Both the position numbers and the translations under genes were made by a program. DNA of 43,775 bases, taken from the NCBI GenBank assembly GCA_030690985.1, contig JAUYFG010000310.1, positions 1 through 43,775 on the forward strand, in the 5' to 3' direction. The notes beneath the pieces were generated by a model. That model did not search any database and was not told the DNA's origin. It was given only the letters and a program-made list of their open reading frames with translations. The DNA comes from Pseudomonadota bacterium (GTDB taxonomy: Bacteria > Pseudomonadota > Gammaproteobacteria > Burkholderiales > Thiobacillaceae). The stretch's first letter is position 1. The number at the start of each line of letters is the position of its first letter. Shown here piece by piece: positions 3,534 to 43,294 of the stretch.

Positions 3534-3670
3534 GTAGCCCGGATGCAGCGATAGCGGAATCCGGGGAAGTGGGGCACCTAAGCTCCCGGATTCCGCTACG
3601 CTGCCCCCGCAAGGGGGACGCCGGATTCGTAAGCGCTGAAGCGCCAACGACTCCGCTGCATCCGGGCTAC
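3534..3670. repeat. Palindromic repeat family D carrying a nested cassette
   Basis: Outer arms GTAGCCCGGATGCAGC / GCTGCATCCGGGCTAC with inner arms around CGGAATCCGGG. A 55-bp cassette (3605-3659) interrupts the right arm between GCTGC and ATCCGGG. Uninterrupted copies are at 28979-29056 and 32675-32710. The metA stop codon TAG (3667-3669) lies inside the right end. Confidence 0.85.
3605..3659 (+). repeat. Nested 55-bp cassette (family I), copy 1
   Basis: Begins with CCCCGCAAGGGGGACGCCGG and ends with CGACTCCGCTGC. An internal small palindrome is built from AAGCGCT and AGCGCC. It is inserted in the right arm of a family D repeat and is flanked by CTGC on both sides. Confidence 0.8.
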
Positions 3671-4740
3671 GAGTAAATGCCAAACGGATCATCCGGGTTC
3701 ACCCCATCCATGAACGGCTTCTTGCGATCGCGGTGGGTCACCTGATACATGCACCCCATCCAGTTGCCGATCACGGCTTCGGCGGTGTCGTGCCAGGTGT
3801 TGTCGAGATTGGCCGCCACCAGGGCTTCCGGGAATGCCGGCAGCGCCTCGCCCGCCGCTACCGCTTTATGCAGATGCTCGCGCCATTCCAGCAGGATGGC
3901 CTGCTCGTGCGGGCGCAGATAGTTGTCCGGGAAGGGCGGCGGGGAGGGCAACTTGCCTTGCGCCGCCAGCAGCGCATCACGCTTGTATTCCTTCAACAGG
4001 GAAATCGTGTCGTATTCCGGATGGCCCTGGAAAAACACCATACGCAGGCCGTCGTGGCTGGTGGCCAGGTGCACCCCCACTTCCTCGCTTTCCACCAGCA
4101 CGCGCAGGCCGGCGGCTTCGAACTGGGCGCGCGAGACATCGTTCCAGCGCGAATGCGGCACATCGAAGCGGGTATTCACATCGCCCACCAGCGGATGCCG
4201 CTTGTCCATCACCCGGTGCGAGAACACGCCCCAGCGCTTGTTCGGCTGCCGCACGCGCGGCTGGCCGTAACGGAAGTGCAGCACCGCATGGGTGGCCAGG
4301 CAGGACAGCAGGGTGGTGGTGACGTTGCCCCAGGCCCAGTCGATGACCTCGCCCAGCGGCCCCCAGAACGGCTCCTTCGACAAATCCTCGCCGGTGACGT
4401 TGGCGCCGGTGATGATCAACGCATCCAGGCCCTGTTCCCGCACTTGTGCAAACGTCTCGTAATAGCGCGCGATATGTGCCGCCGCCTTGTCGCCGCGCGG
4501 GATGGCAGCGAGCGTGAAGGGGTGCACATAGAACTGCGCGATCGGGTTGCTCTCGCCGATCAGCCGGAAAAACTGCCGCTCGGTCGCCTCCAGCGCCGCA
4601 TCCGGCATCATGTTCAGCAGGCCGATATGCAGTTCGCGAATGTCCTGATGCGCCGCCCGCGCCTCAGGCAGCACGATGGTCGTTCCCGCCTCACGCAGGC
4701 GTTGCAGGGCGGGCAAATCGTTATGGGCGACGATGGGCAT
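3667..4740 (-). CDS. metA: Homoserine O-succinyltransferase (MetA family)
   Basis: First committed step of methionine synthesis: acylation of homoserine using an acyl-CoA. The 357-residue length is slightly above the roughly 310 of the E. coli enzyme. The acyl-enzyme cysteine is Cys147 in LLSCLATHA, and the His-Glu pair is His240 and Glu242 in FFQGHPEYD. N-terminal family motif LHIGLLNMMP is at 38-47. Whether succinyl- or acetyl-CoA is used cannot be settled from length and motif alone. The final codons read directly into a palindromic repeat, whose GTAG end provides the TAG stop. An orphan antitoxin gene lies 36 bases upstream on the same strand. The start ATG at 4740 matches the conserved N-terminus. 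Confidence 0.9.
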   Translation of the reverse strand: MPIVAHNDLPALQRLREAGTTIVLPEARAAHQDIRELHIGLLNMMPDAALEATERQFFRLIGESNPIAQFYVHPFTLAAIPRGDKAAAHIARYYETFAQVREQGLDALIITGANVTGEDLSKEPFWGPLGEVIDWAWGNVTTTLLSCLATHAVLHFRYGQPRVRQPNKRWGVFSHRVMDKRHPLVGDVNTRFDVPHSRWNDVSRAQFEAAGLRVLVESEEVGVHLATSHDGLRMVFFQGHPEYDTISLLKEYKRDALLAAQGKLPSPPPFPDNYLRPHEQAILLEWREHLHKAVAAGEALPAFPEALVAANLDNTWHDTAEAVIGNWMGCMYQVTHRDRKKPFMDGVNPDDPFGIYS

Positions 4741-4776
4741 GAAAATCTCCGAAACAGAGTAAACAGAGGGCGTGAA

Positions 4777-5055
4777 TCAATCCTGCGTACCCGGCTCGGC
4801 CAGGCGGGCCGCGCGGCGACGGCGCCCTTCAGCCTTCACCTCGGCCATGCTCAATGGCGTCGCGACGCCGCTTGCCACACCTTCACGGATAGCCTGGCGC
4901 AACTGTTCGAGCTTCGCCGCGCGCAGGTGATCCTGCTCTTCCATCAGGCGCAACGCCTCGCGCACCACCTCGCTGGCCGAGGTATAGCGTCCTGAACTGA
5001 CTTTTTCTCGCACCATGGATTCAAGTTGCGGCGTTAGGTTGATGTTCATCGTCAT
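4777..5055 (-). CDS. ParD/CopG-type antitoxin, without an adjacent toxin
   Basis: A 92-residue ribbon-helix-helix protein of the type II antitoxin ParD family. The N-terminal strand (MTMNINLTP) would form the DNA-binding ribbon, followed by the helix-turn-helix SASEVVREALRLMEE. The C-terminal half is charged (GRRRRAARLAEP) and would normally clamp a ParE or RelE toxin. ATG at 5055 is preferred because AAGGA lies about nine bases upstream; ATG at 5049 is an alternative. No toxin reading frame lies on either side: metA starts 36 bases downstream and the upstream gap is gene-free. It may be a solitary repressor or the remnant of a broken pair. Confidence 0.8.
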   Translation of the reverse strand: MTMNINLTPQLESMVREKVSSGRYTSASEVVREALRLMEEQDHLRAAKLEQLRQAIREGVASGVATPLSMAEVKAEGRRRRAARLAEPGTQD

Positions 5056-5297
5056 GGCGAGCGTCCTTGCGGGAGGGTGTTTCGAAACTAGCCAGGCTGG
5101 CAAAGACTGTCAAACATTGGCAAGCAAAACAGGGGTGGCAAGTAGGGTTTAGCCGTCGGAATAGGGGGTCTCATGGGGGTGGCGCGGGATATTAAGCCGC
5201 AAATGACTACTTCGCGTGCCGTGAAAGCTTGCATCGAAGGCGACTTGCCCGTTTACTTGCGCCTTTTCCGATTCGCCACCGTACATAACGACACCGC

Positions 5298-7262
5298 ATG
5301 ACGCTTTACGACGAATCCTCAATCAAAGTTCTGAAGGGCCTGGAACCGGTGCGCGCGCGGCCGGGCATGTACACGCGCACCGACTCGCCCACCCATGTCA
5401 TCCAGGAAGTGATCGACAACGCCGCCGACGAGGCGCTGGCCGGCTACGCGCGCAATCTCACGGTGCGCGCGCACCTCGATGGCTCGGTTTCGGTGGCGGA
5501 CGATGGTCGCGGCATTCCGGTGGGGCCGCATCCCACCGAGAAGGAGCCGACCGTGGTGGTGGTATTCACCCGCCTGCATGCCGGCGGCAAGTTCGACAAG
5601 ACCAGCGGCGACGGCGCTTATGCCTTTTCCGGCGGCCTGCATGGCGTCGGCGTGTCGGTGACCAATGCCTTGTCCACCCGTTTGAGGGTCACGGTAAAGC
5701 GCGATGGCGAGTTGCACCAGGTCGAATTCGCCGACGGCGGCAAGGTGTCCATCCCGCTGCAAGTGGTCGGCAAGTGCGCGAAAAAAGACACCGGCACCCT
5801 GGTGCGCGCCTGGCCCGACCCGGCGTTTTTCGACAGCCCGCGCATCTCCCTGCCTGAGTTGGAGCGCCTGCTGCGCGCCAAGGCAGTCTTGCTGCCCGGC
5901 GTGACCGTGAAGCTGGTTATCGAGCGCGAGGAGGGCGAGCAGGAAAAAGCCTGGTCCTACCCGAACGGCCTGCCGCAGTACTTGGCGGAATTGCTCAACG
6001 ATGCGGAACCCCTGCTGCCCGCCTTCTCCGGCGAGCGCTATGCCGATGGCGACGGCGGCGGCTATGCCAAAGGCGAAGGCGCGGCCTGGGTGTTCACCTG
6101 GGCGGACGGAACCGGCGCGGCGGAAAGCTTCGTCAACCTGATCCACACCGCGCAGGGCGGCACCCACGAAGCCGGCCTCAAAGCCGGGGTGTTCGATGCG
6201 GTCAAAGCCTTCGCCGAACACCACGGCCTGCTGCCACGCGGCGTCCAGTTGCGCCAGGAGGATGTCTGCGGGCGGATGAGCTTCGTGCTCTCGGCGCGCA
6301 TCCTCGACCCGCAGTTCCAGGGCCAGGTGAAGGAAAAACTCAACTCGCGCGAGGCGGTGAAACTGGTCTCCAGCATGGTGCGCGACCCCTTCGAAGTCTG
6401 GCTCAACGGCCATGTCGAGCACGGCAAGACGCTGGCCGAACTGGCCGCGCGGGCGGCGGCGAGCCGGCTGAAATCGGCGCAGAAGGTGGAGAAGCGCAAA
6501 CAATCCTCCGTGGTGGTGCTGCCGGGCAAGCTGTCCGATGCCAGCGGCAGCGACATGGAAAGCAACGAACTGTTTCTGGTCGAAGGCGATTCCGCCGGCG
6601 GCTCCGCCAAACAGGCGCGTGACCGCGAAACCCAGGCCATCCTGCCCCTGCGCGGCAAGGTGCTGAACACCTGGGAAGTGGAGCCGGAACGCCTTTACGC
6701 CAACAACGAAGTACACGACATCGCCGTTGCCCTGGGGGTGGAACGGCACGCTATCGACGATCATCCCGACCTTTCCGGCCTCAGATATGGCAAGGTAGTG
6801 CTGATGGCGGATGCCGATGTCGATGGTTCCCACATCAACACCCTGTTGCTCACCCTGTTCTTCCGCCACTTTCCACGGCTGGTGGAACAGGGCCGCATCT
6901 GCGTGGCGCAACCGCCGTTGTATCGGGTGGACGTACCGGCGCGCGGCAAGAAGCCGATGCGCCGTTTCTACGCCCTGGACGATGACGAGTTGACGGCGAT
7001 TCGTGACCGCCTGGTGCGCGACGGGGTGAAACCGGAGTCCATCGAAGTGGGTCGTTTCAAGGGCCTGGGCGAGATGAATCCGGAACAATTGCGGGAAACC
7101 GCGATGAGCCCGGCCACTCGCCGGGTCTTGCCGGTGCGGGTGTCGCGCGAAGAAATGGCGGCGGCGATCACCATGTTCGACATGCTCATGGGCAAGGGAG
7201 AGGCCGGCGCGCGCCGGGAATGGATGGAAGCAAAAGGCAACACGGTAGAGGCGGATATATGA
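5298..7262 (+). CDS. parE: DNA topoisomerase IV subunit B
   Basis: ATPase subunit of topoisomerase IV, which decatenates daughter chromosomes together with ParC. The GHKL ATPase motif VIDNAADEAL is near residues 38-47 and a glycine-rich ATP lid (GGLHGVGVSV) near 115. The TOPRIM motifs are LVEGDSAGGSA near 427 and DADVDGSH near 505. The final GYRB-type segment contains RFKGLGEMNPEQL. The 654-residue length lacks the insertion of proteobacterial GyrB and, with DGAYAFSGGLHG, supports ParE over GyrB. No parC lies in the window. The stop overlaps the next small gene (ATGA). The 240-base region upstream shows no strong sigma-70 match that I trust. Confidence 0.93.
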   Translation: MTLYDESSIKVLKGLEPVRARPGMYTRTDSPTHVIQEVIDNAADEALAGYARNLTVRAHLDGSVSVADDGRGIPVGPHPTEKEPTVVVVFTRLHAGGKFDKTSGDGAYAFSGGLHGVGVSVTNALSTRLRVTVKRDGELHQVEFADGGKVSIPLQVVGKCAKKDTGTLVRAWPDPAFFDSPRISLPELERLLRAKAVLLPGVTVKLVIEREEGEQEKAWSYPNGLPQYLAELLNDAEPLLPAFSGERYADGDGGGYAKGEGAAWVFTWADGTGAAESFVNLIHTAQGGTHEAGLKAGVFDAVKAFAEHHGLLPRGVQLRQEDVCGRMSFVLSARILDPQFQGQVKEKLNSREAVKLVSSMVRDPFEVWLNGHVEHGKTLAELAARAAASRLKSAQKVEKRKQSSVVVLPGKLSDASGSDMESNELFLVEGDSAGGSAKQARDRETQAILPLRGKVLNTWEVEPERLYANNEVHDIAVALGVERHAIDDHPDLSGLRYGKVVLMADADVDGSHINTLLLTLFFRHFPRLVEQGRICVAQPPLYRVDVPARGKKPMRRFYALDDDELTAIRDRLVRDGVKPESIEVGRFKGLGEMNPEQLRETAMSPATRRVLPVRVSREEMAAAITMFDMLMGKGEAGARREWMEAKGNTVEADI

Positions 7263-7462
7263 CACAGGAAACACCAGAAACATCAGTAATGCTGTTGGCG
7301 AGCGAAATGGAGGAGCGGCGTTTCTGCTCCAGTTGTGGCCGCACCAAACCGCTCCTGGGCGGTGCCCTGGTGCGCTGCGCGAACGGCGCCAAACGCTGGA
7401 AATGCGCGGATTGTCGCGCCAAGTCGAAGGCGCACCAGGCCACCAAGACGGGTGGCACGTAA
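7259..7462 (+). CDS. Small zinc-ribbon-like protein overlapping parE
   Basis: A 67-residue protein starting in the ATGA overlap with the parE stop, so translation is probably coupled. Two cysteine pairs, CSSC at residues 23-26 and CADC at 49-52, are separated by a hydrophobic hairpin and suggest one zinc-binding ribbon. One further cysteine (Cys40) lies between them. The C-terminus is basic (RAKSKAHQATK), consistent with nucleic-acid binding. I do not recognise a named family. The first 20 residues are low in structure-forming residues and the protein has no signal or membrane segment. A role with topoisomerase IV is suggested only by the overlap. Confidence 0.65.
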   Translation: MTQETPETSVMLLASEMEERRFCSSCGRTKPLLGGALVRCANGAKRWKCADCRAKSKAHQATKTGGT

Positions 7463-7492
7463 TCTGTCGGTATCGGGCAGTTGCGGGTCGTC

Positions 7493-8953
7493 ATGCCCAA
7501 TAAACCATCTCGATGCAGGACACGCCGCGCTTTGATCTGCTTACGGTCGGCGGTTGCGCTTTTTTTTCTCGCTGCCGGCGCCCACGCCGATCTCCCACAA
7601 CCGGTCGCCCAGGCCCTGCGCCAGGCCGGCATTCCCGACAGCAACGTGGCTATCGTGGTACACGACCTCGATGCTGCCGAACCGCTGCTTCTGCACGGTG
7701 GCGAGCGTTCTCTGAACCCCGCTTCGGTGATGAAACTGGTCACCACCCTGGCCACGCTCGACAGTTTCGGCCCCGCGCACACCTTCAAAACCCGTGTATT
7801 GCTGGACGGCACGCTCAAGGACGGCGTTCTCGACGGCCGCCTGATATTGCAGGGCGGCGGCGACCCGTCACTGACCGTGGAGCGCTTCTGGCTATTGCTC
7901 AGGGAAATTCGCGCGCGCGGAGTGCGCGAAATACGCGGCGAGGTGATCCTCGACGGCGGCTATTACCAACTCGACCCAAGCGACCCCGCCGCCTTCGATC
8001 AGGCGCCGCTACGACCCTACAACGCCCCGCCCGCCGCGCTACTGGTCAACTTCAACACGGTGGCCTTGCGCCTGGCCAGCGACGGCATGAACGTCAGCGC
8101 GCGCTTCGACCCGCCGCTTGCAGCCATCACACTCGCCAACCGGTTGACGCCCGGCGATGGTGCCTGCAACGGCCTGCGCGAACAGATGATTCTGGATGCC
8201 GGCAAGCTCACCCTGACTGGTCGCTATGCCCTGGCTTGCGGCGATCAGGCCATCAGCCTCAACCTGCTGCCGCCGGATGCCACCACGGCCGCCTGGTTCA
8301 GCCGTCTCTGGAACGAGCTGGGTGGCCAACTCAGTGGCGGCGTGGTGAGTGGCCAGACACCGATCACGGCGCTGTCGTTACTGGAATTCGACTCACAGCC
8401 GGTCGCGCAACTGGTGCGCGACACCAACAAGTTCAGCAACAACGTCATGGCCAGGATGCTGCTGCTCAACCTCGGCGCCGCCCGATTCGGCGCGCCCGCC
8501 ACCTGGGACAAGGGCGAGCGAGCGCTGCGCGCCTGGCTGGCGGCGCGCGATCTCGACTGCGGCAAGCTGGTGCTGGAAAACGGCGCCGGCCTCTCGCGCA
8601 TCGAGCGCATCTCGGCAGCCTCCCTGGCCAAACTGTTGCGTTGGGCCACCCTGCAACCGGCCTGGTTCGAGTTCGCCGCTTCGTTGCCGGCGGTGGGGTT
8701 GGAAGGCACCCAGAAGAACCGCCTCAACGACTCTGCGGCCCAAGGCCAGGCCTGGCTGAAAAGTGGCAGCCTCGATGGCGTGCGTAACCTGGCCGGTTAC
8801 GCGCGCACCCCGAACGGGCGGCGCCGCGTCGTCGTGTTCCTGATCAACCACCACAACGCCGGTGCCGCTGGCCGCGCTCAGGATGCCCTGGTGGAGTGGG
8901 CCACCGACACCCTGATGGCGGCACCGGAGAACATGGGAAAAGCAGCAAATTAG
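7493..8953 (+). CDS. dacB: D-alanyl-D-alanine carboxypeptidase/endopeptidase (PBP4 type)
   Basis: Periplasmic class C penicillin-binding protein that trims or cuts peptidoglycan cross-links. The catalytic SxxK tetrad is Ser78-Val-Met-Lys81 in LNPASVMKL. The SxN motif is in KFSNNVMAR, and the KTG-like motif is KSGSLDGVR near the C-terminus. Residues 1-32 form a Sec signal peptide: basic start, hydrophobic core VALFFLAAG, and likely cleavage after AHA. The 486 residues match the PBP4/DacB family. ATG at 7493 is chosen because the signal peptide is complete from there; an in-frame TTG at 7481 would only add four residues. It starts 30 bases after the zinc-ribbon gene and is followed by a gene-free, AT-rich gap. 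Confidence 0.9.
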   Translation: MPNKPSRCRTRRALICLRSAVALFFLAAGAHADLPQPVAQALRQAGIPDSNVAIVVHDLDAAEPLLLHGGERSLNPASVMKLVTTLATLDSFGPAHTFKTRVLLDGTLKDGVLDGRLILQGGGDPSLTVERFWLLLREIRARGVREIRGEVILDGGYYQLDPSDPAAFDQAPLRPYNAPPAALLVNFNTVALRLASDGMNVSARFDPPLAAITLANRLTPGDGACNGLREQMILDAGKLTLTGRYALACGDQAISLNLLPPDATTAAWFSRLWNELGGQLSGGVVSGQTPITALSLLEFDSQPVAQLVRDTNKFSNNVMARMLLLNLGAARFGAPATWDKGERALRAWLAARDLDCGKLVLENGAGLSRIERISAASLAKLLRWATLQPAWFEFAASLPAVGLEGTQKNRLNDSAAQGQAWLKSGSLDGVRNLAGYARTPNGRRRVVVFLINHHNAGAAGRAQDALVEWATDTLMAAPENMGKAAN

Positions 8954-9282
8954 CAAGCACTTATGCACATTAATGCGCTTGACTTAACTTCCCGCACCTG
9001 CCTTTGGATAAATTCCACCGCCTAACGTAACTCATTGATTTTCAATAATTTGTTTTGTGCATAAAAAACAGGCCAATGGCATAAGCGCCCGTTCTACAAG
9101 TGTTTTTGACCCTTTCATGACAGCTTGTCCACATGGTTATCCACAGGTTCGGTGGACAACTCGAAAACCTCCTTGAGCGGCATCGGCTTCGGCTTTTGTT
9201 GTGACAAATCACTTTAACTTCGAGCGTTAATTGACTAGCAAGAATGCGGCTCTGCAACATGAAACCTTTGCTTGATTTCGGC
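8954..9282. other. Gene-free AT-rich gap before priA
   Basis: No reading frame with recognisable coding character exists between dacB and the repeat in front of priA. The stretch 8954-9240 is much more AT-rich than the surrounding genes, especially around 9031-9070. It holds several DnaA-box matches, described separately. No convincing intrinsic terminator was seen after dacB. Confidence 0.7.
8961..9159. promoter_or_regulatory. Cluster of DnaA-box-like sites (candidate origin or DnaA-controlled region)
   Basis: Three perfect matches to the consensus TTATNCACA are present: TTATGCACA at 8961-8969 (plus), TTATGCACA at 9056-9064 (minus) and TTATCCACA at 9137-9145 (plus). Near matches are TTGTCCACA at 9125-9133 (plus), TTATCCAAA at 9003-9011 (minus) and TTGTCCACC at 9151-9159 (minus). 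They sit in an AT-rich gap between dacB and priA. This may be a replication origin, a DnaA-titrating site or a DnaA-regulated priA promoter. Most proteobacterial origins lie beside dnaA, which is not in the window. Confidence 0.55.
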
Positions 9283-9357
9283 CGTAGGTTGGGCAAAGCG
9301 CAGCGTGCCCAACGAACCGTCGCAATGTTGGGCACGCTGCGCTTTGCCCAACCTACG
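9283..9357. repeat. Palindromic repeat family A (CGTAGGTTGGGCAAAGCG type), copy 1
   Basis: Near-perfect inverted repeat with 30-base arms (CGTAGGTTGGGCAAAGCGCA and onward) around a short loop, ending nine bases before the priA ATG. Other copies are at 25011-25085, 37166-37240 and 40005-40136. Confidence 0.9.
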
Positions 9358-9365
9358 GTGCCGGT

Positions 9366-11615: not shown

Positions 11616-11627
11616 ACCGTGGCCCCC

Positions 11628-11685
11628 GTGGGAGCGGGCTTGCCCGCGATAGCCACCGTTGTATCGCGGGCAAGCCCGCTCCTAC
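11628..11685. repeat. Palindromic repeat family C, copy 2
   Basis: Intact family C hairpin 12 bases after the priA stop, with a loop around CCACCGTTGT. It could be read in the 5' extension of the next frame but lies upstream of that gene's likely start. Confidence 0.85.
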
Positions 11686-11827
11686 GGCGCGGTTGAACCG
11701 TAGCGTGCGCCGCGCGCACGATTGGCTGAACGTGCGCACGGCGCACGCACCGCTATTGCGGTGCAGCGAAATCCTTGTGTACCCTCAAGCCACGCCCGCC
11801 CTTTCCTCACGCCGCAAGGATGCCCTC

Positions 11828-12742
11828 GTGACCCGCATCAAACCCTCCAGCTTCGCCAAGACCAAATCCCGCGCCGCCCCGAAACCCGCCAAGGAAGCCA
11901 GCGGCATCACTCGGGTGGCGGCCATCCAGATGGCCTCCGGCCCTAATGTGGCGGCCAACCTGGCGGAAGCCGAGCGACTCATCGGCATGGCGGCGGCGGC
12001 CGGCGCCAAGCTGGTGGCACTGCCGGAAAACTTCTCCATCATGGGCCTCAACGACACCGACAAGATCAAGGTGCGGGAACAACCGGGCAAGGGGCCGATG
12101 CAACGTTTTCTCGCCGCCCAGGCCAGGAAGCACGGCATCTGGCTGGTCGGCGGCTCCATTCCGATGGCCTGCGACGATCCCGGCAAGGTGCGCAACGCCT
12201 GCCTGGTCTACGACGACAAGGGCAAGTTGGCGGCGCGCTACGACAAGATCCACCTGTTCGGCCTCGATCTCGGCAACGAGCACTACAGCGAGGAAAGCAC
12301 CATCGAGCCGGGTGACCGCGTGGTGGTGGTGGAAACCCCGTTCGGCCGCCTTGGCCTGTCGATCTGTTACGACCTGCGCTTTCCCGAGCTGTATCGGGCG
12401 ATGGGCGCTGTGGACATGATCGTGGTCCCGGCCGCCTTCACCGCCACCACCGGCCGCGCGCATTTTGAAACCTTGATCCGCGCCCGCGCCATCGAGAACC
12501 TGGCCTACGTGATCGCCCCGGCGCAGGGCGGCTACCACGTCTCCGGCCGCGAGACTCACGGCGACAGCATGATCGTCGACCCCTGGGGCAACATCCTCGA
12601 CCGCCTGCCGCGCGGCTCCGGCGTGGTCGTCGCCGGCCTCAACCCCGACTACCAGGCCGGTCTGCGCACCAGCCTGCCCGCCCTCAAGCACCGCACCCTG
12701 GAGTGCAAGAAAGGCATCAAGGTCGAAGTCATCAAGCCCTGA
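11828..12742 (+). CDS. Carbon-nitrogen hydrolase (nitrilase superfamily, Nit1-like amidase)
   Basis: A 304-residue nitrilase-superfamily enzyme with the catalytic triad Glu67 (LPENF), Lys140 (YDKIHLF) and Cys180 ([10 protein letters not shown]). The pattern of insertions fits the Nit1 branch, whose characterised members hydrolyse deaminated glutathione to alpha-ketoglutarate and Cys-Gly. That substrate is inferred from family only. A GTG start at 11828 is chosen because AAGGA lies about eight bases before it. A longer in-frame extension upstream runs through a palindromic repeat and has no family similarity. The first 26 residues are basic and Ser/Ala-rich, ahead of the conserved domain starting ITRVAAIQM. 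tldD follows 65 bases downstream, separated by a family E repeat. Confidence 0.87.
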
Positions 12743-12749
12743 ACAGTCG

Positions 12750-12799
12750 CGCCGGCCCCCGCCGGCCTCCAACCCCGCCGGCAGGATGCCGGCGCTACG
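12750..12799. repeat. Palindromic repeat family E (extended), between the amidase gene and tldD
   Basis: GCCGGC-rich inverted repeats ending in GGATGCCGGCGCTAC. It ends eight bases before the tldD ATG, leaving no normal ribosome-binding sequence there. Confidence 0.7.
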
Positions 12800-12807
12800 A
12801 GCCCCCC

Positions 12808-16287: not shown

Positions 16288-16292
16288 GTCAG

Positions 16293-16446
16293 CTAACGTG
16301 CATGGCGGCCAGGCCGCCCCGCATGATGAAACCGGGCGCACCTGTAGCGCAGGCGTCCCCGGATCGCGTCCGGGGCAGGCTCTCGCCTGCTCTTGGCGCT
16401 GAATGCAGGCGGGACGCCTGCGCTACAAGGGCGTGGTTGTTTCACG
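16293..16446. repeat. Tandem repeat family F, unit 1 (154 bp)
   Basis: Begins CTAACGTGCATGGCGGCC, contains an inverted repeat with arms TGTAGCGCAGGCGTCC / GGACGCCTGCGCTAC, and ends TTTCACG. It carries a 24-base insertion (CCGGATCGCGTCCGGGGC region) absent from unit 2. It begins six bases upstream of the kinase start codon. Confidence 0.85.
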
Positions 16447-16576
16447 CTAACGTGCATGGCGGCCAGGCCGCCCCGAATGATGAAACCGGGCGCACCTGTA
16501 GCGCAGGCGTCCTCGCCTGCTCTTGGCGCTGAATGCAGGCGGGACGCCTGCGCTACAAGGGCGAGCATGTTTCACG
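16447..16576. repeat. Tandem repeat family F, unit 2 (130 bp)
   Basis: Direct repeat of unit 1 lacking the 24-base insertion, with only a few substitutions elsewhere. Together the two units fill the 328-base gap between the FIST gene and the kinase gene, which holds no gene. Confidence 0.85.
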
Positions 16577-20625: not shown

Positions 20626-20651
20626 ACCTGGAAACAGCGGCCGACCTCGTC

Positions 20652-20763
20652 GTAGGAGCGGGCTCGCCCGCGATAGCCGCCGTGGTGCCCGCAAGGGGCA
20701 CGCCGGATTCGTACGCGCTGAAGCGCTACGACTCCGCTGTATCGCGGGCAAGCCCGCTCCTAC
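20652..20763. repeat. Palindromic repeat family C carrying a nested cassette, copy 3
   Basis: Family C arms (GTAGGAGCGGGCTCGCCCGC / complement) with a 54-bp family I cassette at 20687-20740 placed in the loop. It separates the two DUF302-like genes. Confidence 0.85.
20687..20740 (+). repeat. Nested cassette (family I), copy 2
   Basis: Begins GCCCGCAAGGGGCACGCCGG and ends CGACTCCGCTGT, inserted in the loop of a family C hairpin. Confidence 0.8.
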
Positions 20764-20848
20764 GACGACCTCACGGAGCCACCCGAAGGGTGAACCGCAG
20801 CAGATGCTCCCGCGCCTGTATCCATACGGGTCAACTGAGGAATCCAGG

Positions 20849-32419: not shown

Positions 32420-32639
32420 GCAGCCTGTCGGACTTTGGAATCGTCGGCTGCGAAACGACCGCAGCGGACCATTTTTCACCAGCTTCTTGCACCCGCAAGG
32501 GGTACGCCGGATTCGTAAGCGCTAAAGCGCCAACGACTCCGCTGCACCATAGTTCGACTATGCGGCTGCAAATCCGGCAAAAACCAGCCTCGCCGGGGCC
32601 GCTTTTCGCTATCGACGACCAAAGTCCGACAGGCTGCCA
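32420..32639. mobile_element. MITE-like element (family J) with terminal inverted repeats and a nested cassette
   Basis: Ends are AGCCTGTCGGACTTTGG and its exact complement CCAAAGTCCGACAGGCT, about 220 bp apart. The interior has no reading frame of note. A family I cassette (32491-32545) is inserted in it. Size, terminal repeats and lack of a transposase suggest a non-autonomous miniature element. Confidence 0.6.
32491..32545 (+). repeat. Nested cassette (family I), copy 3
   Basis: Begins ACCCGCAAGGGGTACGCCGG and ends CGACTCCGCTGC. It lies between CTTGC and ACCATAG inside the family J element. Confidence 0.8.
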
Positions 32640-32828: not shown

Positions 32829-32857
32829 GACTGCGCATGAAATGCGACGTTACCGGG

Positions 32858-34666: not shown

Positions 34667-34680
34667 GTTGTGGCCTCTCG

Positions 34681-34731
34681 GTAGGGTGCGCCATGCGCAC
34701 CATTCACATCGGTGCGCATGGCGCACCCTAC
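34681..34731. repeat. Palindromic repeat family H (GTAGGGTGCGCCATGCGCAC type)
   Basis: Near-perfect hairpin with arms of about 23 bases in the gap between the molybdoenzyme and anchor genes. A half copy (GTGCGCGCGGCGCACCCTAC) lies at 37299-37318. Confidence 0.85.
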
Positions 34732-34735
34732 GTAA

Positions 34736-37033: not shown

Positions 37034-37077
37034 GGTTCTTCCTCTCAGATCACGGTGACACAACATGGCGGTCGGCC

Positions 37078-37154
37078 GTAGGAGCCGGCTTGCCGGCGAT
37101 AGCCACGGTTGCTCGAAGTGCCGGCGTTGCAATCGCGAGCAAGCTCGCTCCTAC
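37078..37154. repeat. Palindromic repeat family C, copy 4 (diverged arms)
   Basis: GTAGGAGCCGGCTTGCCGGC on the left and GAGCAAGCTCGCTCCTAC on the right, with a longer loop than other copies. Confidence 0.8.
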
Positions 37155-37165
37155 GGTTTCAGCGC

Positions 37166-37240
37166 CGTAGGTTGGGCAAAGCGAAGCGTGCCCAACATCG
37201 CGGCGGTTCGTTGGGCACGCGCAGCGACGCCCAACCTACG
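37166..37240. repeat. Palindromic repeat family A, copy 3
   Basis: CGTAGGTTGGGCAAAGCGAA on the left with a partly diverged right arm (GCGCAGCGACGCCCAACCTACG). Confidence 0.85.
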
Positions 37241-37346
37241 CTACTACCGGTAGTGGTTGTCTGTGACAACCGGATAAGCACGATTTCAAGTTCAAAGGTG
37301 CGCGCGGCGCACCCTACATAAGCAATGGATTGCATGGCGCTTCCGC

Positions 37347-39986
37347 TCAGGTTGCCGCCAGCAACTTCTTTAGTTCCGGAATGCAGGAGCCGCAGTTGCT
37401 CCCCGCCTGCAACTTGATGCCCAACGCTTCCACGCTGTTCACGCCCTGGCGAATCGCCTGTTTCAGCGCGTTTTCGCCGACCCCGAAGCAGGCGCAGACG
37501 GTGCGGCCGGCATCCGGCACGTCTCTGCTGGGAAGTCCCATGAGCAGTGCCGAGCGTTCGGCGTCGTTGAGACGGTCTTGCTCGAACAGCCCTTCCAGCC
37601 AGTGGCGCGGCGGCAGGGCGGCGAAGTCGCGGTCGAAGAAGCAGACCATCTCGATCCGGCCATCCCGCATCAACGCGGCGCGGTAGCGGCTGACGCCGCA
37701 GTCCTTCATCTCGATCCAGTCACCGTCGGCGCCGAAGGCCTCGCGTAGCCGTCTGGGCCAGTCGCATTCGCTTTCCGTGCCGGCCAGCTCGTGGCGCCAG
37801 CAAGCGCGGCAGCGCACCCGGGTCCAGTAGCCGGCCTGGGTGCACTCGACCGGCGCGCGCGCCATGACGAAGCCATACCAGGTGGCCGCATAGGGCTCCA
37901 CCGCCACCGGCGTGTGCTTGAACTCAGGCTGGCCGGAAATCTCGTCGGTGACCGCGTACACCAGGGCATCGACCCGCGCCTTGGCGGAGTTCTGACCATT
38001 CCAGTGGATCGGCGCGAACACCGAGCCGGGGCGCTGTTCCGCGCTTTCCACCACCCGCGCCAGCATTTCGCCGCGCCCGTTGCGGATGCGCGCGAGGCCG
38101 CCGTTGCGGACTTCCGCGCGGCGGATGTCGGCGGGGTGCATCTCGACATAGGGTTCGTCGATGTGCGAGAGCAGCCGCGCAGTCTTGCCGCTGCGGCTCA
38201 TGCTGTGCCACTGGTCGCGCACGCGGCCGGTATTGAAGATGAACGGCTGGCTGGCGTTGACCGGCGTGGCCGGGCCGCGCGGCGGCCGCACGATCATGCG
38301 CGCCTTGCCGCTGCCGGTGTAGTAACGGCCCTGGCCGAACAGGCGCGGCGTGCCACGGCCGTTGGCGGTCACCGGCCATTGCACGGGTTCGAGCGCGTCG
38401 TAGTCGGCTGAGTCCAGATGGGTCAGGCCGGCCAGGTTGAAGTCGCGGCGCCCCTCGTTCTCGAACACCGACAACGCCGCGTGTTCGCGAAAAATATCCG
38501 CCGCGCTGTTGCACACAAATGCCTGGGTGTGGCCCATGCGCCGCGCCACTTCATTGACGATCCACCAATCCGGTTGCGCTTCGCCGGGCAACGGCAGGAA
38601 GGGGCGCTGGCGCGAAATGCGCCGTTCCGAATTGGTCACCGTGCCGTCCTTCTCACCCCAGGCAGCGGCGGGTAGCAGCACATGCGCCAGTCTGGCGGTA
38701 TCGGTATGGCGGGTGTTGTCGGACACCACGACGAATTCGCACTGCTTCAGCGCGGCCACTGCGCGATCCGCCTCCGGCAGGCTCACCGCCGGGTTGGTCG
38801 CCATGATCCAGATCGCCTTGATCCGGCCATCGCGCACGGCATCGAACAACTCCACCGCCTTGAGTCCGGGGCGATGGGTGATGTTGGGCGCGTTCCAGAA
38901 GCGGCCGACGCGCTCGATGCACTCCGGCACGAGGTCCATGTGCGCCGCCAGTTGATTGGCCAGGCCACCCACCTCGCGCCCGCCCATCGCGTTGGGCTGG
39001 CCGGTGATGGAGAACGGCGAGGCGCCGGGCAGGCCGACCCGGCCCGTGGCGAGGTGGACATTGATGACGCTGTTTACTTTATCGACGCCGGAGGAAGACT
39101 GGTTGATGCCCTGGGAAAACACCGTGACGCTCTTCGGCGTTTGCGTGAACAGGCGGTAGAACTCGGCCACATCGGCTTCGGCCAAGCCGCAATGCGCCGC
39201 CACTTTCGGGATGTTCAGGCCGCCGACTTCCTCCAGCGCGGCGCCGAAACCCTCGACATGGTTTTCCAGATAGCTCCAGTCGATGCCGCCGTGGTTGTCG
39301 CCCTCCCTGCGCAGATGATTGAGCAGGCCGTTGAACAGCCAGGCATCCGCGCCCGGCTTGATCGCCAGATGCAGGTCGGCAATCTCGGCTGTGGCGGTGC
39401 GGCGCGGGTCGATCAGCACGATCTTCATGCCCGGTCGCGCCTTCTTCGCGGCGACGATGCGCTGGTACACCACGGGATGCGCCCAGGCGGTATTGGAGCC
39501 GGTGAGCACGATCAGATCGGCGATTTCCAGGTCTTCGTAGCAGCCGGGCACAGCATCGCTGCCGAAGGCGCGCTTGTGGCCGGCCACGGCGGAAGACATG
39601 CACAGGCGGGAATTGGTGTCGATGTTGCCGCTGCCGATGAAGCCCTTCATCAGCTTGTTGGCGACGTAGTAGTCCTCGGTCAGCAACTGGCCGGAGACGT
39701 AGAAAGCCACGGCATCGGGGCCGTGTTCGGCGATCACCTGCTGGAAGCGTTGCGCAACGCTGTCGAGCGCGGCATCCCAGGTGACCCGTCGGCCGTCGAT
39801 TTCCGGATGCAGCAGGCGATCATCCAGGCTCAGGGTCTCGCCCAGCGCCGCGCCCTTGGAGCACAGCCGGCCCAGGTTGGCCGGGTGCTCGGGGTCGCCA
39901 CGCACGCTGAAGGTGTCACCGGCGCGGCTCACCAGCACGCCGCAGCCGACGCCGCAGTAGGGGCAGGTGGTGCGGATGGGGGTCAT
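37347..39986 (-). CDS. nasA: Assimilatory nitrate reductase, catalytic subunit
   Basis: Cytoplasmic 879-residue nitrate reductase that feeds nitrite to NirB/NirD. The N-terminal [4Fe-4S] ligands are CPYCGVGC and LCSKG. The Mo ligand cysteine is in SRLCMSSAVAGHKRAFGSD. The C-terminus carries a BFD-like [2Fe-2S] domain with CACFGVGENAL and NCGSC, as in Klebsiella NasA. A Cys-rich segment near residues 735-755 (VRCRACWRHELAGTESEC) precedes it. ATG at 39986 is set by the conserved MTPIRTTCPYC; upstream extension would read through a palindromic repeat, and no strong Shine-Dalgarno is seen. The BFD domain would accept electrons from a diaphorase or NirB-like partner; no separate NasB/NasC diaphorase gene is in the window. 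Confidence 0.95.
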   Translation of the reverse strand: MTPIRTTCPYCGVGCGVLVSRAGDTFSVRGDPEHPANLGRLCSKGAALGETLSLDDRLLHPEIDGRRVTWDAALDSVAQRFQQVIAEHGPDAVAFYVSGQLLTEDYYVANKLMKGFIGSGNIDTNSRLCMSSAVAGHKRAFGSDAVPGCYEDLEIADLIVLTGSNTAWAHPVVYQRIVAAKKARPGMKIVLIDPRRTATAEIADLHLAIKPGADAWLFNGLLNHLRREGDNHGGIDWSYLENHVEGFGAALEEVGGLNIPKVAAHCGLAEADVAEFYRLFTQTPKSVTVFSQGINQSSSGVDKVNSVINVHLATGRVGLPGASPFSITGQPNAMGGREVGGLANQLAAHMDLVPECIERVGRFWNAPNITHRPGLKAVELFDAVRDGRIKAIWIMATNPAVSLPEADRAVAALKQCEFVVVSDNTRHTDTARLAHVLLPAAAWGEKDGTVTNSERRISRQRPFLPLPGEAQPDWWIVNEVARRMGHTQAFVCNSAADIFREHAALSVFENEGRRDFNLAGLTHLDSADYDALEPVQWPVTANGRGTPRLFGQGRYYTGSGKARMIVRPPRGPATPVNASQPFIFNTGRVRDQWHSMSRSGKTARLLSHIDEPYVEMHPADIRRAEVRNGGLARIRNGRGEMLARVVESAEQRPGSVFAPIHWNGQNSAKARVDALVYAVTDEISGQPEFKHTPVAVEPYAATWYGFVMARAPVECTQAGYWTRVRCRACWRHELAGTESECDWPRRLREAFGADGDWIEMKDCGVSRYRAALMRDGRIEMVCFFDRDFAALPPRHWLEGLFEQDRLNDAERSALLMGLPSRDVPDAGRTVCACFGVGENALKQAIRQGVNSVEALGIKLQAGSNCGSCIPELKKLLAAT

Positions 39987-40004
39987 GGCAGGCCAGACAC
40001 AACT

Positions 40005-40136
40005 CGTAGGTTGGGCAAAGCGCAGCGTGCCCAACAAACCGTCGCGATGTTGGGCACGCTTCGCTTTGCACCCGCAAGGGGCACGCCGGATTCGTAAGCC
40101 GCTGAAGCGGACAACGACTCCGCTGCCCAACCTACG
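40005..40136. repeat. Palindromic repeat family A carrying a nested cassette, copy 4
   Basis: Family A arms interrupted in the right arm between CTTTGC and CCAACC by a 57-bp family I cassette (40070-40126). It fills the nirD-nasA gap. Confidence 0.88.
40070..40126 (+). repeat. Nested cassette (family I), copy 4
   Basis: Begins ACCCGCAAGGGGCACGCCGG and ends CGACTCCGCTGC. The inner palindrome is CCGCTGAAGCGG, changed on both sides relative to the GCGCTGAAGCGC of other copies. Confidence 0.8.
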
Positions 40137-40139
40137 GTG

Positions 40140-40484
40140 TTACGCATTTGGGCAACCTTCTTCCGGGGTCAGCGACAGGCTGACCACGCCCTCCACCACC
40201 CGCACCGGATAGCGCGCGGCGCAACCGACATCCGGGGCGACGGCGAGGCCGGTGTCGAGGTTGATCTTCCAGTCATGCAGCGGGCAGGCCACTTTTTTGC
40301 CGTGGACGATGCCTTGCGACAACGGGCCGCCCTTGTGCGGGCATTTGTCGCGCAGGGCGAAAATCTCGTCGTCGACGGTGCGGAACACCGCGATCTCGCC
40401 GGCCGTGGTCTTGACGACACGGGCGCCCTGGCGGGGGATGTCGTCGATGTGGCCGATCTGGAGCCAGTTTTCGTTGTGAGTCAT
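40140..40484 (-). CDS. nirD: Nitrite reductase small subunit NirD, Rieske type
   Basis: A 114-residue Rieske-fold small subunit of NAD(P)H nitrite reductase. Cluster ligands are all present: CPH in RDKCPHKGGPL and CPLH in VACPLHDWKINL. It should therefore carry a [2Fe-2S] cluster, unlike enterobacterial NirD, which lacks the ligands. ATG at 40484 has AAGGA about nine bases upstream. A family G palindrome lies between it and nirB, and a family A palindrome with a nested cassette lies between it and nasA. It works with NirB to reduce nitrite to ammonium in the cytoplasm. Confidence 0.93.
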   Translation of the reverse strand: MTHNENWLQIGHIDDIPRQGARVVKTTAGEIAVFRTVDDEIFALRDKCPHKGGPLSQGIVHGKKVACPLHDWKINLDTGLAVAPDVGCAARYPVRVVEGVVSLSLTPEEGCPNA

Positions 40485-40507
40485 GAAATGGTTTCCTTTC
40501 GTTATTC

Positions 40508-40607
40508 CGTCATTCCCGCGAAAGCGGGAATCCAGGTTGTTCATCAAACTCGGGCTTTAAAGCACATCAGATTGACGAACTGGATTCCCGCCTACGCGGG
40601 AATGACG
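40508..40607. repeat. Palindromic repeat family G (CGTCATTCCCGCG type), copy 1
   Basis: Arms CGTCATTCCCGCGAAAGCGG / complement (CTGGATTCCCGCCTACGCGG) about 100 bp apart. The nirB stop (40592-40594) lies in its right end. A second copy ends the window at 43673-43775. Confidence 0.88.
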
Positions 40608-43294
40608 GTGAGGTGCGTGAACTCATGCTTCTGCTCGCCCTCGGCGCGCGCCTTCCACGGGTCCACCTGCACGGGCTTCTGAGAAATCAGGAAGCGTTCG
40701 GCCAGCAACTTGCGATTGCCTTCGTCTTCCACCAATCTGGCCTTGATGTGCGCCAGGCCGACCCGTTCCACCCAGGGTGCGGTGCGTTCCAGGTAGTGAG
40801 CTTCCTCGCGGTAGAGCTGGGCGAAGGCGCCGGCGAACTCCAGCACCTGCTCCTCGGTTTCCACCTTGGAGAGCAGATCGGTGACGCGCACCTTGATGCC
40901 GCCGTTGCCGCCGACATGCAGCTCGTAGCCGGAATCGACGCAGACCACGCCGAAATCCTTGATGGTGGCTTCGGCGCAATTCCTTGGACAACCCGACACC
41001 GCCAGCTTGTACTTGTGCGGCATCCAGGAACCCCAGGTGAGTTGTTCCAGCTTCACCCCCAGGCCGGTGGAATCCTGGGTGCCGAAGCGGCACCACTTGG
41101 CGCCGACACAGGTTTTCACCGTGCGCATGGCCTTGCCGTAGGCGTGGCCGGAGACAAAACCGGCGGCGGAGAGGTCAGCCCACATGGCCGGCAAGTCTTC
41201 CTTCTTCACCCCGAACAGGTCGATACGCTGGCCGCCGGTGACTTTCATTTCCGGCACGTTGAATTTCTCCGCCACATCGGCGATGGCGCGCAGTTCTTTG
41301 GGGTTGGTGAGGCCGCCCCACATCCGAGGCACCACCGAGAAGCTGCCGTCTTTCTGAATGTTGCCGTGGGCGCGTTCGTTGATGTAACGCGACTGGGCAT
41401 CGTCCTGATATTCGGTCGGCCAGGCGCAGAGCAGGTAATAGTTGAGCGCGGGGCGGCACTTGGCGCAGCCGTCCGGCGTCTTCCAGTCCATGAAACGCAG
41501 CGTTTCGGGCAGGGTCTTCAGGTCGTTCGCGACGATGGCGGCACGGATTTCGTCGTGGCTGTACTCGGTGCAGCCGCACAGCGGTTTCTTCGAGGGCGCC
41601 ACGGAATAGTCACCGCCCACGGTGGCCGCCAGGATGGTTTCCACCAGGCCGGTGCAGGAGCCGCAGGAGCCGGAGGCCTTGGTATGGGCGCGCACCTCGT
41701 CCAGGGTGAACAGCTTCTTCTCGCGCACGGCCTTGATGATGTCGCCCTTGCAGACGCCGTTGCAGCCGCAGATTTCGGTGCTGTCGGGCATCGCCATGAT
41801 CCGGGTCTTCTCGTCGCCGTGGCCGCCGCCGTGTCCACTATCGCCGAGGTGGTGGCGGCCGAACAAGAGCTTGTCGCGGAAGTCGGAGACATCGGTGTGG
41901 TCGCGCATCAGCTCGAAGTACCAGGTGCCATCGAGGGTGTCGCCGTAGAGCACGGCACCGGCCAGTTGGTTGTCCTTCAGCACCAGCTTCTTGTAGGAAC
42001 CGCGCCCGACGTCCTGGAACACGATTTCCTCATGCCCCTTGCCACCCATGAAGTTGCCGGCGGAGAACAGGTCGATGCCGGTGACTTTCAGCTTGGTCGA
42101 GGTCATCGAGCCGCCGTATTGCGCCACGCCGTGTTCCGCCAGATGGTTGGCGCATACCTTGGCTTGCTCGAACAGGGGTGCTACCAGGCCATAGGCGATG
42201 CCGCGATGGCTGACGCATTCGCCCACGGCATAGATGCGCGGGTCATAGGTCTGCATGGTGTCGTTGACCACCAGGCCACGGTTGCAATAAAGGCCGGCGG
42301 ATTCGGCCAGGGCGGTGTTGGGGCGGATGCCGACCGCCATCACCACCAGGTCGGCGGGGATTTCGGAGCCGTCGTTGAAGCGGATGGCGCCGACGCGCGA
42401 GCCATCCGTAGGAGCGGGCTTGCCCGCGATGCCACCGTCGCCATCGCGGGGAAGCAACGCCGACGTCTGCTTCTTCAGCAAAAACTTCAGCCCTTTCTCT
42501 TCCAGGTTCTTCTGCAACAGGCGCGCGGCCGGTTCGTCCAGTTGCCGGTCGAGCAACCAGTCGCCGATATGCACCACGGAAACCTCCATGCCGCGCAGCT
42601 TCAAGCCATTCGCCGCTTCCAGGCCGAGCAGGCCGCCGCCGATCACCACGGCATTTTTGAATTGCCCGGAGGCGGCAATCATCGCGTCGACGTCGGCGAT
42701 GTCGCGGAAACCGACCACGCCGGGCAGGTCCGCGCCCGGCACCGGCAGGACGAAGGGCTTGGAGCCGGTCGCCAGCAGCATGCGGTCGTAAGCGGCGACG
42801 GTGCCGTCGTCGGCTTCCACGGTGCGGCGCTTGCGGTCGATCTTCACGATCTTCTTGCCGGTATGCAGGGTGATGCCGTTGGCGGCATACCAGTCACGCG
42901 GGTTCAGGATGATCTGTTCCACCGTCTGCTCGCCGGCCAGCACCGGCGACAACATGATGCGGTTGTAGTTGGGGTGTGGCTCATCGCCGAACACCGTGAT
43001 GTCGTAAAGGTCGGGAGCCGACTTGAGCAGCTCTTCCAGGGTGCGCATCCCGGCCATGCCGTTGCCCACCAGTACCAGTTTCATCCGCGCCGCACGGCCG
43101 CCCGAAGGCGCGGATTGCGCCCCCTCGGGGGGCAGCGAAGTCGTTAGTGCTTTAGCGCTTACGAATTCGGCGTCCCCCTGTTGCGGGGGCAGCGGAGCGT
43201 GGGGGTCGTTTATCCGCGCCGCCCGGTCGCCCGAAGGCGCGGATTGCGCCCCCTCGGGGGGCAGCGGAGCGTGGGGGTTGTTCATCGTTGCCAT
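40592..43294 (-). CDS. nirB: NAD(P)H nitrite reductase large subunit NirB
   Basis: Sirohaem nitrite reductase, 900 residues from the ATG at 43294. The order is FAD/NAD(P)-binding domain (LVLVGNGMAGMRTLEEL), two BFD-like [2Fe-2S] regions (CGCNGVCKGDI, CGSCTGL; CGCTEYSHDEI, CAKC), ferredoxin-like halves, then the sirohaem/[4Fe-4S] ligands CVGAKWC and SGCPRNC. Conserved sequence begins only at MKLVLVGNG (ATG 43084). The 70 residues before it are encoded by two family K repeats plus a nested cassette. The strong AGGAAGGA lies before 43294, so that start is preferred. A family C remnant adds PRDGDGGIAGKPAPTDGS (about 280-297). The last residues TVIPA and the TAG come from a family G repeat. Confidence 0.92.
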   Translation of the reverse strand: MATMNNPHAPLPPEGAQSAPSGDRAARINDPHAPLPPQQGDAEFVSAKALTTSLPPEGAQSAPSGGRAARMKLVLVGNGMAGMRTLEELLKSAPDLYDITVFGDEPHPNYNRIMLSPVLAGEQTVEQIILNPRDWYAANGITLHTGKKIVKIDRKRRTVEADDGTVAAYDRMLLATGSKPFVLPVPGADLPGVVGFRDIADVDAMIAASGQFKNAVVIGGGLLGLEAANGLKLRGMEVSVVHIGDWLLDRQLDEPAARLLQKNLEEKGLKFLLKKQTSALLPRDGDGGIAGKPAPTDGSRVGAIRFNDGSEIPADLVVMAVGIRPNTALAESAGLYCNRGLVVNDTMQTYDPRIYAVGECVSHRGIAYGLVAPLFEQAKVCANHLAEHGVAQYGGSMTSTKLKVTGIDLFSAGNFMGGKGHEEIVFQDVGRGSYKKLVLKDNQLAGAVLYGDTLDGTWYFELMRDHTDVSDFRDKLLFGRHHLGDSGHGGGHGDEKTRIMAMPDSTEICGCNGVCKGDIIKAVREKKLFTLDEVRAHTKASGSCGSCTGLVETILAATVGGDYSVAPSKKPLCGCTEYSHDEIRAAIVANDLKTLPETLRFMDWKTPDGCAKCRPALNYYLLCAWPTEYQDDAQSRYINERAHGNIQKDGSFSVVPRMWGGLTNPKELRAIADVAEKFNVPEMKVTGGQRIDLFGVKKEDLPAMWADLSAAGFVSGHAYGKAMRTVKTCVGAKWCRFGTQDSTGLGVKLEQLTWGSWMPHKYKLAVSGCPRNCAEATIKDFGVVCVDSGYELHVGGNGGIKVRVTDLLSKVETEEQVLEFAGAFAQLYREEAHYLERTAPWVERVGLAHIKARLVEDEGNRKLLAERFLISQKPVQVDPWKARAEGEQKHEFTHLTVIPA
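42408..42456. repeat. Degenerate family C repeat inside nirB
   Basis: Left arm GTAGGAGCGGGCTTGCCCGC intact; right arm decayed after ATCGCGGG. It is read in frame on the minus strand as GIAGKPAPT. Confidence 0.8.
43082..43209. repeat. Family K repeat with reversed nested cassette, at the nirB start
   Basis: GC-rich element with TTGCGCCCCCTCGGGGGGCAGCG. A reversed family I cassette (43132-43179) splits it before GAGCGTGGGGG. It adjoins ATGAAA at the conserved nirB start. Confidence 0.75.
43132..43179 (-). repeat. Nested cassette (family I), copy 5, reversed
   Basis: On the minus strand it starts with CCCCGCAACAGGGGGACGCC and ends with CGACTTCGCTGC. It is the most diverged copy and is read in frame in NirB as QQGDAEFVSAKALTT. 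Confidence 0.75.
43212..43284. repeat. Family K repeat, second unit, at the nirB start
   Basis: Direct repeat of the flanking K unit without a cassette. On the minus strand it starts at ATGAACAACCCC just after the likely start codon and ends at the next unit's ATAAACGACCCC. Confidence 0.75.

What the first reader, a model, noticed from the sequence alone, without database searches (positions are those of the whole stretch)
3605..43179. A roughly 55-bp cassette occurs five times, each nested in a different repeat family
The cassette (core CCGCAAGGGG, CGCCGGATTCGTA, inner small palindrome, ACTCCGCTG) lies at 3605, 20687, 32491, 40070 and, reversed, 43132. Its hosts are families D, C, J, A and K. 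For D, C and A, an uninterrupted host copy elsewhere in the window shows exactly where the cassette went in. The join regularly follows and ends with TGC or TGT. Inner palindromes differ between copies by paired changes. It behaves like a minimal mobile or gene-converted unit that targets other hairpins. It may itself derive from a family D arm (GGATTC...CCGCTGC) split by a smaller insert.
Basis: seen in the sequence. Interest (0 to 1): 0.82.

Follow-up and report, generated by a model that had tools for sequence, protein, structure and literature searches.

The report
Tiny double-hairpin mobile DNA cassette
A 54-63-letter piece of DNA that folds into two small hairpins has spread to at least 140 places in this bacterium's genome, landing letter-exact inside other repeats, next to copies of itself and in frame inside working genes, so it looks like an unusually small mobile DNA element whose mover is not yet known.

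Summary
The five cassettes are real and belong to a family with at least 140 copies in this 3.96-Mb genome (a lower bound), probably a Thiobacillus relative (inferred). Each is 54-63 nt: hairpin 1 (15 nt) abutting hairpin 2. Hairpin 2 keeps its pairing through paired changes. Empty sites show exact insertion without deletion: empty hosts for 16 of 44 host clusters, and orthologous empty sites in relatives for the window's J and K cassettes and for in-frame insertions in holA, a cytochrome-d1-type gene, nirJ and cobQ. Tandem arrays occur. Sites tend to be (T)G^C/T. Hairpin loops are enriched about fivefold (12 of 73 contexts against 3.0%), but most independent contexts show no such hairpin. Many copies sit in GTAG-type REP tips; cassettes within a host class are near-identical, so a few founding insertions were probably amplified or converted. 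No mover is identified: 29 of 32 RAYT loci tested lack a cassette; 3 have one against 0.7-1.3 expected. Closest kinds: Rickettsia palindromic elements, mitochondrial double-hairpin elements, REPs (REP tag test failed). Verdict: new variant of a known kind.

The parts
3604..3658 (+). cassette 1, type I, 55 nt; hairpin 1 at 3604-3618, hairpin 2 at 3619-3658; host D
3534..3670 (+). host D: inverted GTAGCCCGGAT...ATCCGGGCTAC repeat, cassette in the second arm after CGCTG
   Evidence: whole D unit not aligned (2-nt join) in relative G016
20686..20739 (+). cassette 2, type I, 54 nt, in the loop between inverted C REPs
   Evidence: empty host at window 11632-11689
20651..20764 (+). host C: inverted pair of GTAGGAGCGGGC REPs
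   Evidence: not aligned at the orthologous place in G019 and G016
32490..32544 (+). cassette 3, type I, 55 nt, in J element
   Evidence: orthologous J in G006 lacks exactly 55 nt
32421..32636 (.). host J: MITE-like element with inverted ends CAGCCTGTCGGACTTTGG
   Evidence: not aligned at the orthologous place in G019, G016, G008, G009
40069..40125 (+). cassette 4, type I, 57 nt, in host A after CTTTG
   Evidence: empty A hosts at 9283 and 25011
40006..40135 (+). host A: GTAGGTTGGGC...GCCCAACCTAC repeat; relatives G022, G017, G007, G019 have other sequence there
43133..43189 (-). cassette 5, 57 nt, in frame in the N-terminal extension of a NirB gene, between K repeat units
   Evidence: 57-nt gap in G006 and G019; empty K unit in window 43232-43278
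40592..43294 (-). nitrite reductase large subunit NirB with K repeats and cassette 5 in its N-terminal extension
   Evidence: TIGR02374, 934.5 bits, residues 73-881 of 900

Best explanation
The cassette is a non-autonomous mobile element made only of two adjacent hairpins. Shown: unit limits, exact insertion without deletion at the sites aligned, the site tendency (T)G^C/T for type I, tandem stacking, in-frame presence in conserved genes, and structure kept by paired changes, with a mismatch near the base of hairpin 2 and, in most subtypes, a TxC mismatch. Inferred: it moves as a folded single strand, cut 3' of TG at its own 3' end (CTG) and at the target, by a TnpA/RAYT-like HUH enzyme acting in trans. 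Also inferred: when it lands in the tip of a REP hairpin, the REP system (or gene conversion between REPs) multiplies the composite, so the cassette hitchhikes to high copy number.
For: 140 copies; 16 of 44 host clusters with gapless empty hosts, the cluster whose flank is another cassette not counted. Orthologous empty sites: J 55 nt, K 57 nt; holA 54 nt, NirF-like 2x57, nirJ 3x57, cobQ 57 nt. Covariation: 92.4% of cells paired, 8 of 19 pairs with changes on both sides against 4.0 +- 1.3 in shuffles, 29 cells against 7.5 +- 2.2. DNA folding z -1.64 to -3.31 for the five window copies. Site tendency and G/Y match. Cassettes within seven host classes (70 of 140 copies classified) 0.963 alike, 0.807 with shuffled labels, maximum 0.848 of 1000. 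C, H2 and A host REPs lie in three of the four own RAYT loci, at densities above the window's. Cassette and RAYT counts correlate over 23 genus genomes, rho 0.58. Cassettes near 3 of 32 RAYT loci against 0.65-1.29 expected, P 0.03-0.14.
Against: 29 of 32 RAYT loci tested have no cassette (32 of the 58 matches), so cassettes are not the regular flanks of these genes. Genome G021 has 17 pattern matches and no Y1_Tnp match at 93% completeness. The RAYT correlation is not corrected for kinship. Further standard pair types are no more than in shuffles (15 against 14.3). The holA site does not follow the TG^Y tendency, and type II contexts show none. The match of first base to right flank is not predicted by a simple IS200/IS605 scheme. 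One C-tip site with orthologous flanks (C26) lacks one REP arm as well as the cassette in G017 and apparently in G006, so whether composites insert as units is undecided.
Confidence: 0.55

Rival explanations
1. Copying by template switching: replication stalls at hairpins, the nascent end pairs with TGC/TGT of another cassette, copies it and returns by the same short homology. No dedicated enzyme is needed.
For: G-Y or TG-Y repeated on both sides of many type I insertions; hairpin contexts enriched; tandem arrays; the NirF-like host site itself ends in CCGCTG like the cassette.
Against: The ends are the same in the great majority of the copies listed; random short homology should give variable ends. 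In the holA, nirJ and cobQ alignments the flanks share none to two bases with the unit's ends.
Confidence: 0.25
2. A site-specific recombinase with a two-base core (IS110-like or serine type) integrates a small circle; G-Y on both sides is the shared core.
For: Both-side match in 37 of 65 type I contexts against 22.2 in shuffles, 0 of 2000 as high; no deletion and no clear duplication.
Against: No IS110 transposase match in this genome, which has the most cassette pattern matches of 101 searched; 6 of 23 genus genomes have one. Type II contexts show no match (4 of 9 against 3.7 in shuffles). Serine recombinases were not searched.
Confidence: 0.12
3. The cassette is an ordinary extra stem-loop of REP elements, spread only by REP movement and gene conversion, with no mobility of its own.
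For: High similarity within host classes; many copies in REP tips.
Against: Exact insertions in cobQ, nirJ, NirF-like and holA genes, in the J element and between K units, with empty orthologs; tandem arrays in genes.
Confidence: 0.05

Closest known systems
Rickettsia palindromic elements (RPE)
   Same: Short palindromic repeats inserted in frame in many unrelated genes (passages of PMC10969869 and PMC3733652)
   Different: About 150 bp in the review passage against 54-63 bp here; here two abutting hairpins, tandem stacking and nesting in REP tips; no sequence comparison was made
Double-hairpin elements and GC clusters of fungal mitochondria (GC42)
   Same: Tiny hairpin elements; stems vary less than loops; a two-base target; presence or absence between strains (passages of PMC4478555); single elements and tandem arrays (a title cited there)
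   Different: Mitochondrial and with an AG target; here a bacterial chromosome, G^Y tendency, inside genes in frame
GTAG- and CGTC-tagged REPs, REPINs
   Same: Hairpin repeats in high copy; some lie in genes and some inside palindromes (abstract and passages of PMC3733652)
   Different: No GTAG or CGTC unpaired tag at the ends, two hairpins instead of one, not the regular flanks of RAYT genes
IS200/IS605-derived miniature elements
   Same: Hairpins with irregularities at the ends, insertion 3' of a short motif without target duplication (recalled)
   Different: No autonomous partner with these ends was found in the loci examined; only about 55 nt
Insertion sequences that target REPs
   Same: REPs serve as insertion targets (PMC1525189, search listing with start of abstract only; IS1397 and IS621 recalled)
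   Different: Those are coding insertion sequences (recalled)

Membership tests
REP (GTAG or CGTC class) | Unpaired GTAG or CGTC tag at one end of a single stem-loop | tested here: not met
   Type I units mostly begin YACCCGC, YCCCCGC or TGCCCGC and end CGCTG; two stem-loops abut. Some type II copies contain GTAG, but inside the unit between the hairpins
REP / REPIN | RAYT gene regularly flanked by the repeat | tested here: not met
   3 of 32 RAYT loci have a cassette within about 1.5 kb, 29 do not; 0.65-1.29 expected
Rickettsia palindromic element | In-frame insertion in conserved genes with empty orthologs | tested here: met
   holA, NirF-like, nirJ, cobQ, nirB extension. But 115 of 140 copies have a length divisible by 3 anyway
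Rickettsia palindromic element | Length near 150 bp | tested here: not met
   Units are mostly 54-63 nt
Rickettsia palindromic element | Sequence of a known RPE family | not tested
   RPE sequences were not compared
Double-hairpin element | Two hairpins, mobile, small | tested here: met
Double-hairpin element | Resident of mitochondrial DNA | tested here: not met
   Bacterial chromosome
Classical MITE | Terminal inverted repeats and target-site duplication | tested here: not met
   The ends pair within each hairpin; the holA site has no duplication. For type I, a 1-3 base repeat G-Y or TG-Y cannot be told from a shared core
IS200/IS605 derivative | Ends shared with an element coding for TnpA | tested here: inconclusive
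   Cassettes near 3 of 32 Y1_Tnp loci; ends split around a gene were not searched

The most novel reading that the evidence does not exclude
Bacterial chromosomes carry a class of element reduced to two hairpins, about 55 nt, which transposes precisely by an enzyme in trans, inserts in frame into genes, and reaches high copy number by riding in the tips of REP hairpins that the RAYT system copies: a parasite of a parasite.
Probability: 0.35. Interest if true: 0.82.

Novelty: new variant of a known kind. Interest (0 to 1): 0.6.

Why it matters
It would be among the smallest precisely mobile DNA units in bacteria (my judgement, no survey made). Because genomes with different copy numbers at the same gene site exist (0, 1 or 2 in the NirF-like gene; 0 or 3 in nirJ), how such elements move, stack and become part of proteins can be tested directly. 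Nesting in REP tips gives a natural test of whether RAYTs copy whatever the hairpin carries. The five window copies alone show three kinds of nesting: REP, MITE-like element and coding repeat.

Tried and rejected
RAYT neighbourhood: cassettes in 3 of 32 RAYT loci. I first took this for chance; with each genome's own density 0.65-1.29 are expected, P 0.03-0.14, so it is a slight, undecided excess, and not regular flanking. IS110: no match in this genome. Rfam: no match in the window at gathering thresholds. A flank-palindrome score over 35 nt was too blunt (score of 10 or more in 12.9% of 116 sites, 3.0% of shifted points; 5 of 44 clusters) and was replaced by a stem score at the insertion point. 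A supposed orthologous empty site, L163 against C111, proved on alignment to be another copy of a longer repeat around the C REP pair. Four C-tip sites were queried in 7 relatives; only C26 showed clear orthologous flanks on both sides, and the result is undecided. Literature: Thiobacillus with repetitive extragenic palindromic gave one paper, unrelated by title; nested insertion with repetitive extragenic palindromic and hairpin gave none; small dispersed repeats of cyanobacteria gave no relevant title among the 10 listed of 400. Rows dropped: 10 of 49 cluster representatives, divergent or of odd length, the window's K copy among them, were left out of alignment A1. Of 137 matches, 104 were used; 16 of 220 sites were dropped there as inner tandem junctions. 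Bookkeeping: one search missed 4 window copies, added; a notebook entry gives 18 of 44 clusters with empty sites, the right count is 16 (queries were the first six members of each cluster).

Full report
Observation. The five cassettes are present at the stated places. The core 13-mer has five matches at up to one mismatch; at up to two mismatches there are 6 against 1.63 expected, and 0 of 100 shuffles reach 6. The genome has 77 matches of a 17-mer at up to 2 mismatches, its reversed control 1; some of the two-mismatch ones are ordinary sequence. The covariance model built from 39 cassettes finds 140 matches at E <= 0.01; only 150 of 4170 first-look candidates were scored, so 140 is a lower bound.

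Anatomy. The unit is mostly 54-63 nt: hairpin 1, positions 1-15, then hairpin 2 to the 3' end. In the 39-row alignment 92.4% of cells pair; 8 of 19 pairs show changes on both sides (shuffles 4.0 +- 1.3), 29 cells (7.5 +- 2.2); further pair types do not exceed shuffles (15 against 14.3); sliding the partner by 1-3 columns drops pairing to 51% or less. Hairpin 1 pairs less well (79.5% of cells) than hairpin 2 (96.0%). The structure was drawn by me from these sequences, which favours it over slid versions. Rows were one per similarity cluster, 39 of 49 representatives of 167 cassettes; 10 divergent or odd-length ones, including the window's K copy, were left out. The base pair at the 3' end flips from C-G (type I, ends CGCTG) to G-C (type II, ends CGCTC). 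Some type II copies have a wholly different stem (GTGGTTG/CAACCAC), and hairpin 1 also occurs as CACCAGTTCTTGGCA. DNA folding gives two hairpins in all five window copies, z -1.64 to -3.31.

Insertion. Tandem neighbours merged, the 140 matches make 126 sites; 116 have 30 nt on both sides and fall into 44 host clusters. For 16 clusters a gapless empty host exists in the 912,893 bases held, leaving out one cluster whose flank is itself a cassette. These 16 clusters hold 86 of the 116 sites. Orthologous tests with relatives of the genus: the J cassette (55 nt) is missing from the same J element in G006, and the K cassette (57 nt) from the NirB gene in G006 and G019. For A, C and D the relatives examined lack the host repeat or have other sequence there, so these do not separate host from cassette insertion.

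Genes. One query with five sites was searched in 23 genomes, and 20 stretches were fetched and aligned. holA carries 54 nt, absent in G006, G022, G019, G016; G008 and G009 have a diverged stretch there that I read as a remnant. A cytochrome-d1-type gene (PF02239; NirF-like is my reading) has two 57-nt units, one in G021, none in G006, G019, G016, G022. nirJ has three units, none in G016, G019, G022. cobQ has one, none in G022, G016, G019, G007, G006, G012. Names come from Pfam and NCBIfam. The fifth site, a DDE transposase gene with a 56-nt unit, showed no simple empty ortholog. Since 115 of 140 copies have a length divisible by 3, in-frame presence alone does not show selection.

Target. From 220 sites (116 own, 104 from other loci) 204 enter 74 independent host contexts, 65 type I and 9 type II; 16 whose right flank is the next tandem unit were dropped. 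Type I: left base G in 48, TG in 29; right base C in 40, T in 18; first cassette base equals first right-flank base in 47 against 31.8 in shuffles, both ends match in 37 against 22.2; the last base matches the left flank no more than in shuffles (47 against 46.1). Type II shows no match (4 of 9 against 3.7). The holA site has neither duplication nor TG^Y. Stem score of 7 or more around the point: 12 of 73 contexts, 3.0% of random TG^Y points, 3.8% of random points, Mann-Whitney p 0.004. So hairpins are favoured, yet most contexts show none.

Why REP tips dominate by copy. Contexts with stem score 6 or more hold 87, and the C-tip context (score 5) 29, together 116 of 203 sites. Seven host classes set by simple flank rules take 70 of 140 copies; within them cassettes are 0.963 alike against 0.807 with shuffled labels, and 17 of 26 C-tip copies are identical. 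That fits few founding insertions followed by copying of composites or by conversion. The host families H2, C and A occur in three of the four RAYT loci of this genome (4, 5 and 5 arms; A also 5 at a second) at densities above those of the window, so the REP system is a plausible copier; this is inference.

Mover. The genome has four Y1_Tnp matches; 66 of 101 genomes searched, own included, have one. Cassette and RAYT counts correlate over 23 genus genomes (rho 0.58; 0.50 in the 16 at 90% completeness or more), uncorrected for kinship; four genomes have cassettes without RAYT, three the reverse. Of 58 Y1_Tnp matches in the genus 32 loci were searched with the model: 3 have a cassette within about 1.5 kb, against 0.65-1.29 expected from each genome's density, P 0.03-0.14. 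IS110 has no match here. The enzyme is therefore not identified.

Distribution. Pattern matches in 23 of 101 genomes, 4 of 52 genera; with the model, 36 of 399 genomes of the order, 17 of 158 genera, with stricter filters and 14 candidates scored per genome. Named records with exact matches (86 stretches) include Thiobacillus thioparus DSM 505, T. denitrificans RG, and Hydrogenophilales, Gallionellaceae and Sulfuriferula assemblies. That the window's genome is of this kin is inferred from these.

Literature. Seen as passages: PMC10969869 (RPE in frame in genes), PMC4478555 (GC42 hairpin elements, AG target), PMC3733652 (abstract, outline and passages: tagged REPs, intragenic REPs, REPs inside palindromes). 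PMC1525189 only in a search listing. Searches whose listings showed no description of this element. Subscription papers are not held, so absence from print is not shown.

Check. Mended: the RAYT neighbourhood is not plainly chance, the copy count is 116 of 203, and the dropped rows are told.

Noticed in passing
window 32421-32636: J element: about 216 bp with inverted ends CAGCCTGTCGGACTTTGG, CTAG-like flanks, further copies in the genome; present at the same place in G006, not aligned there in G019, G016, G008, G009. Looks like a MITE.
   Followed up: partly
window 43080-43269: K repeat: direct repeat in the N-terminal extension of NirB; G006 and G019 have it too, without the cassette.
   Followed up: partly
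window 16292-16576: Repeat units of 65-70 bp holding CTGTAGCGCAGGCG/CGCCTGCGCTACA REP arms.
   Followed up: no
L038 and L217 (contig C154): Two genes about 2 kb apart, nirJ and a cytochrome-d1-type gene, carry three and two cassettes in frame; relatives aligned have one or none.
   Followed up: yes
L163 around 1000-1200, L188: A longer inverted repeat (GGCTCTG...CAGAGCC) encloses a C REP pair, with and without the cassette: nesting three deep.
   Followed up: partly
L015: Two tandem cassettes joined on the left to a D arm and on the right to a C arm: recombination between copies or an assembly chimera.
   Followed up: no
L096, L110, L131, L137, L146, L151: Cassette between similar flanks (CAAAAG^AYC) in Thiobacillus, Hydrogenophilales, Sulfuriferula and a record labelled Rhizobium: an old shared insertion, transfer or mislabelled bin.
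   Followed up: no
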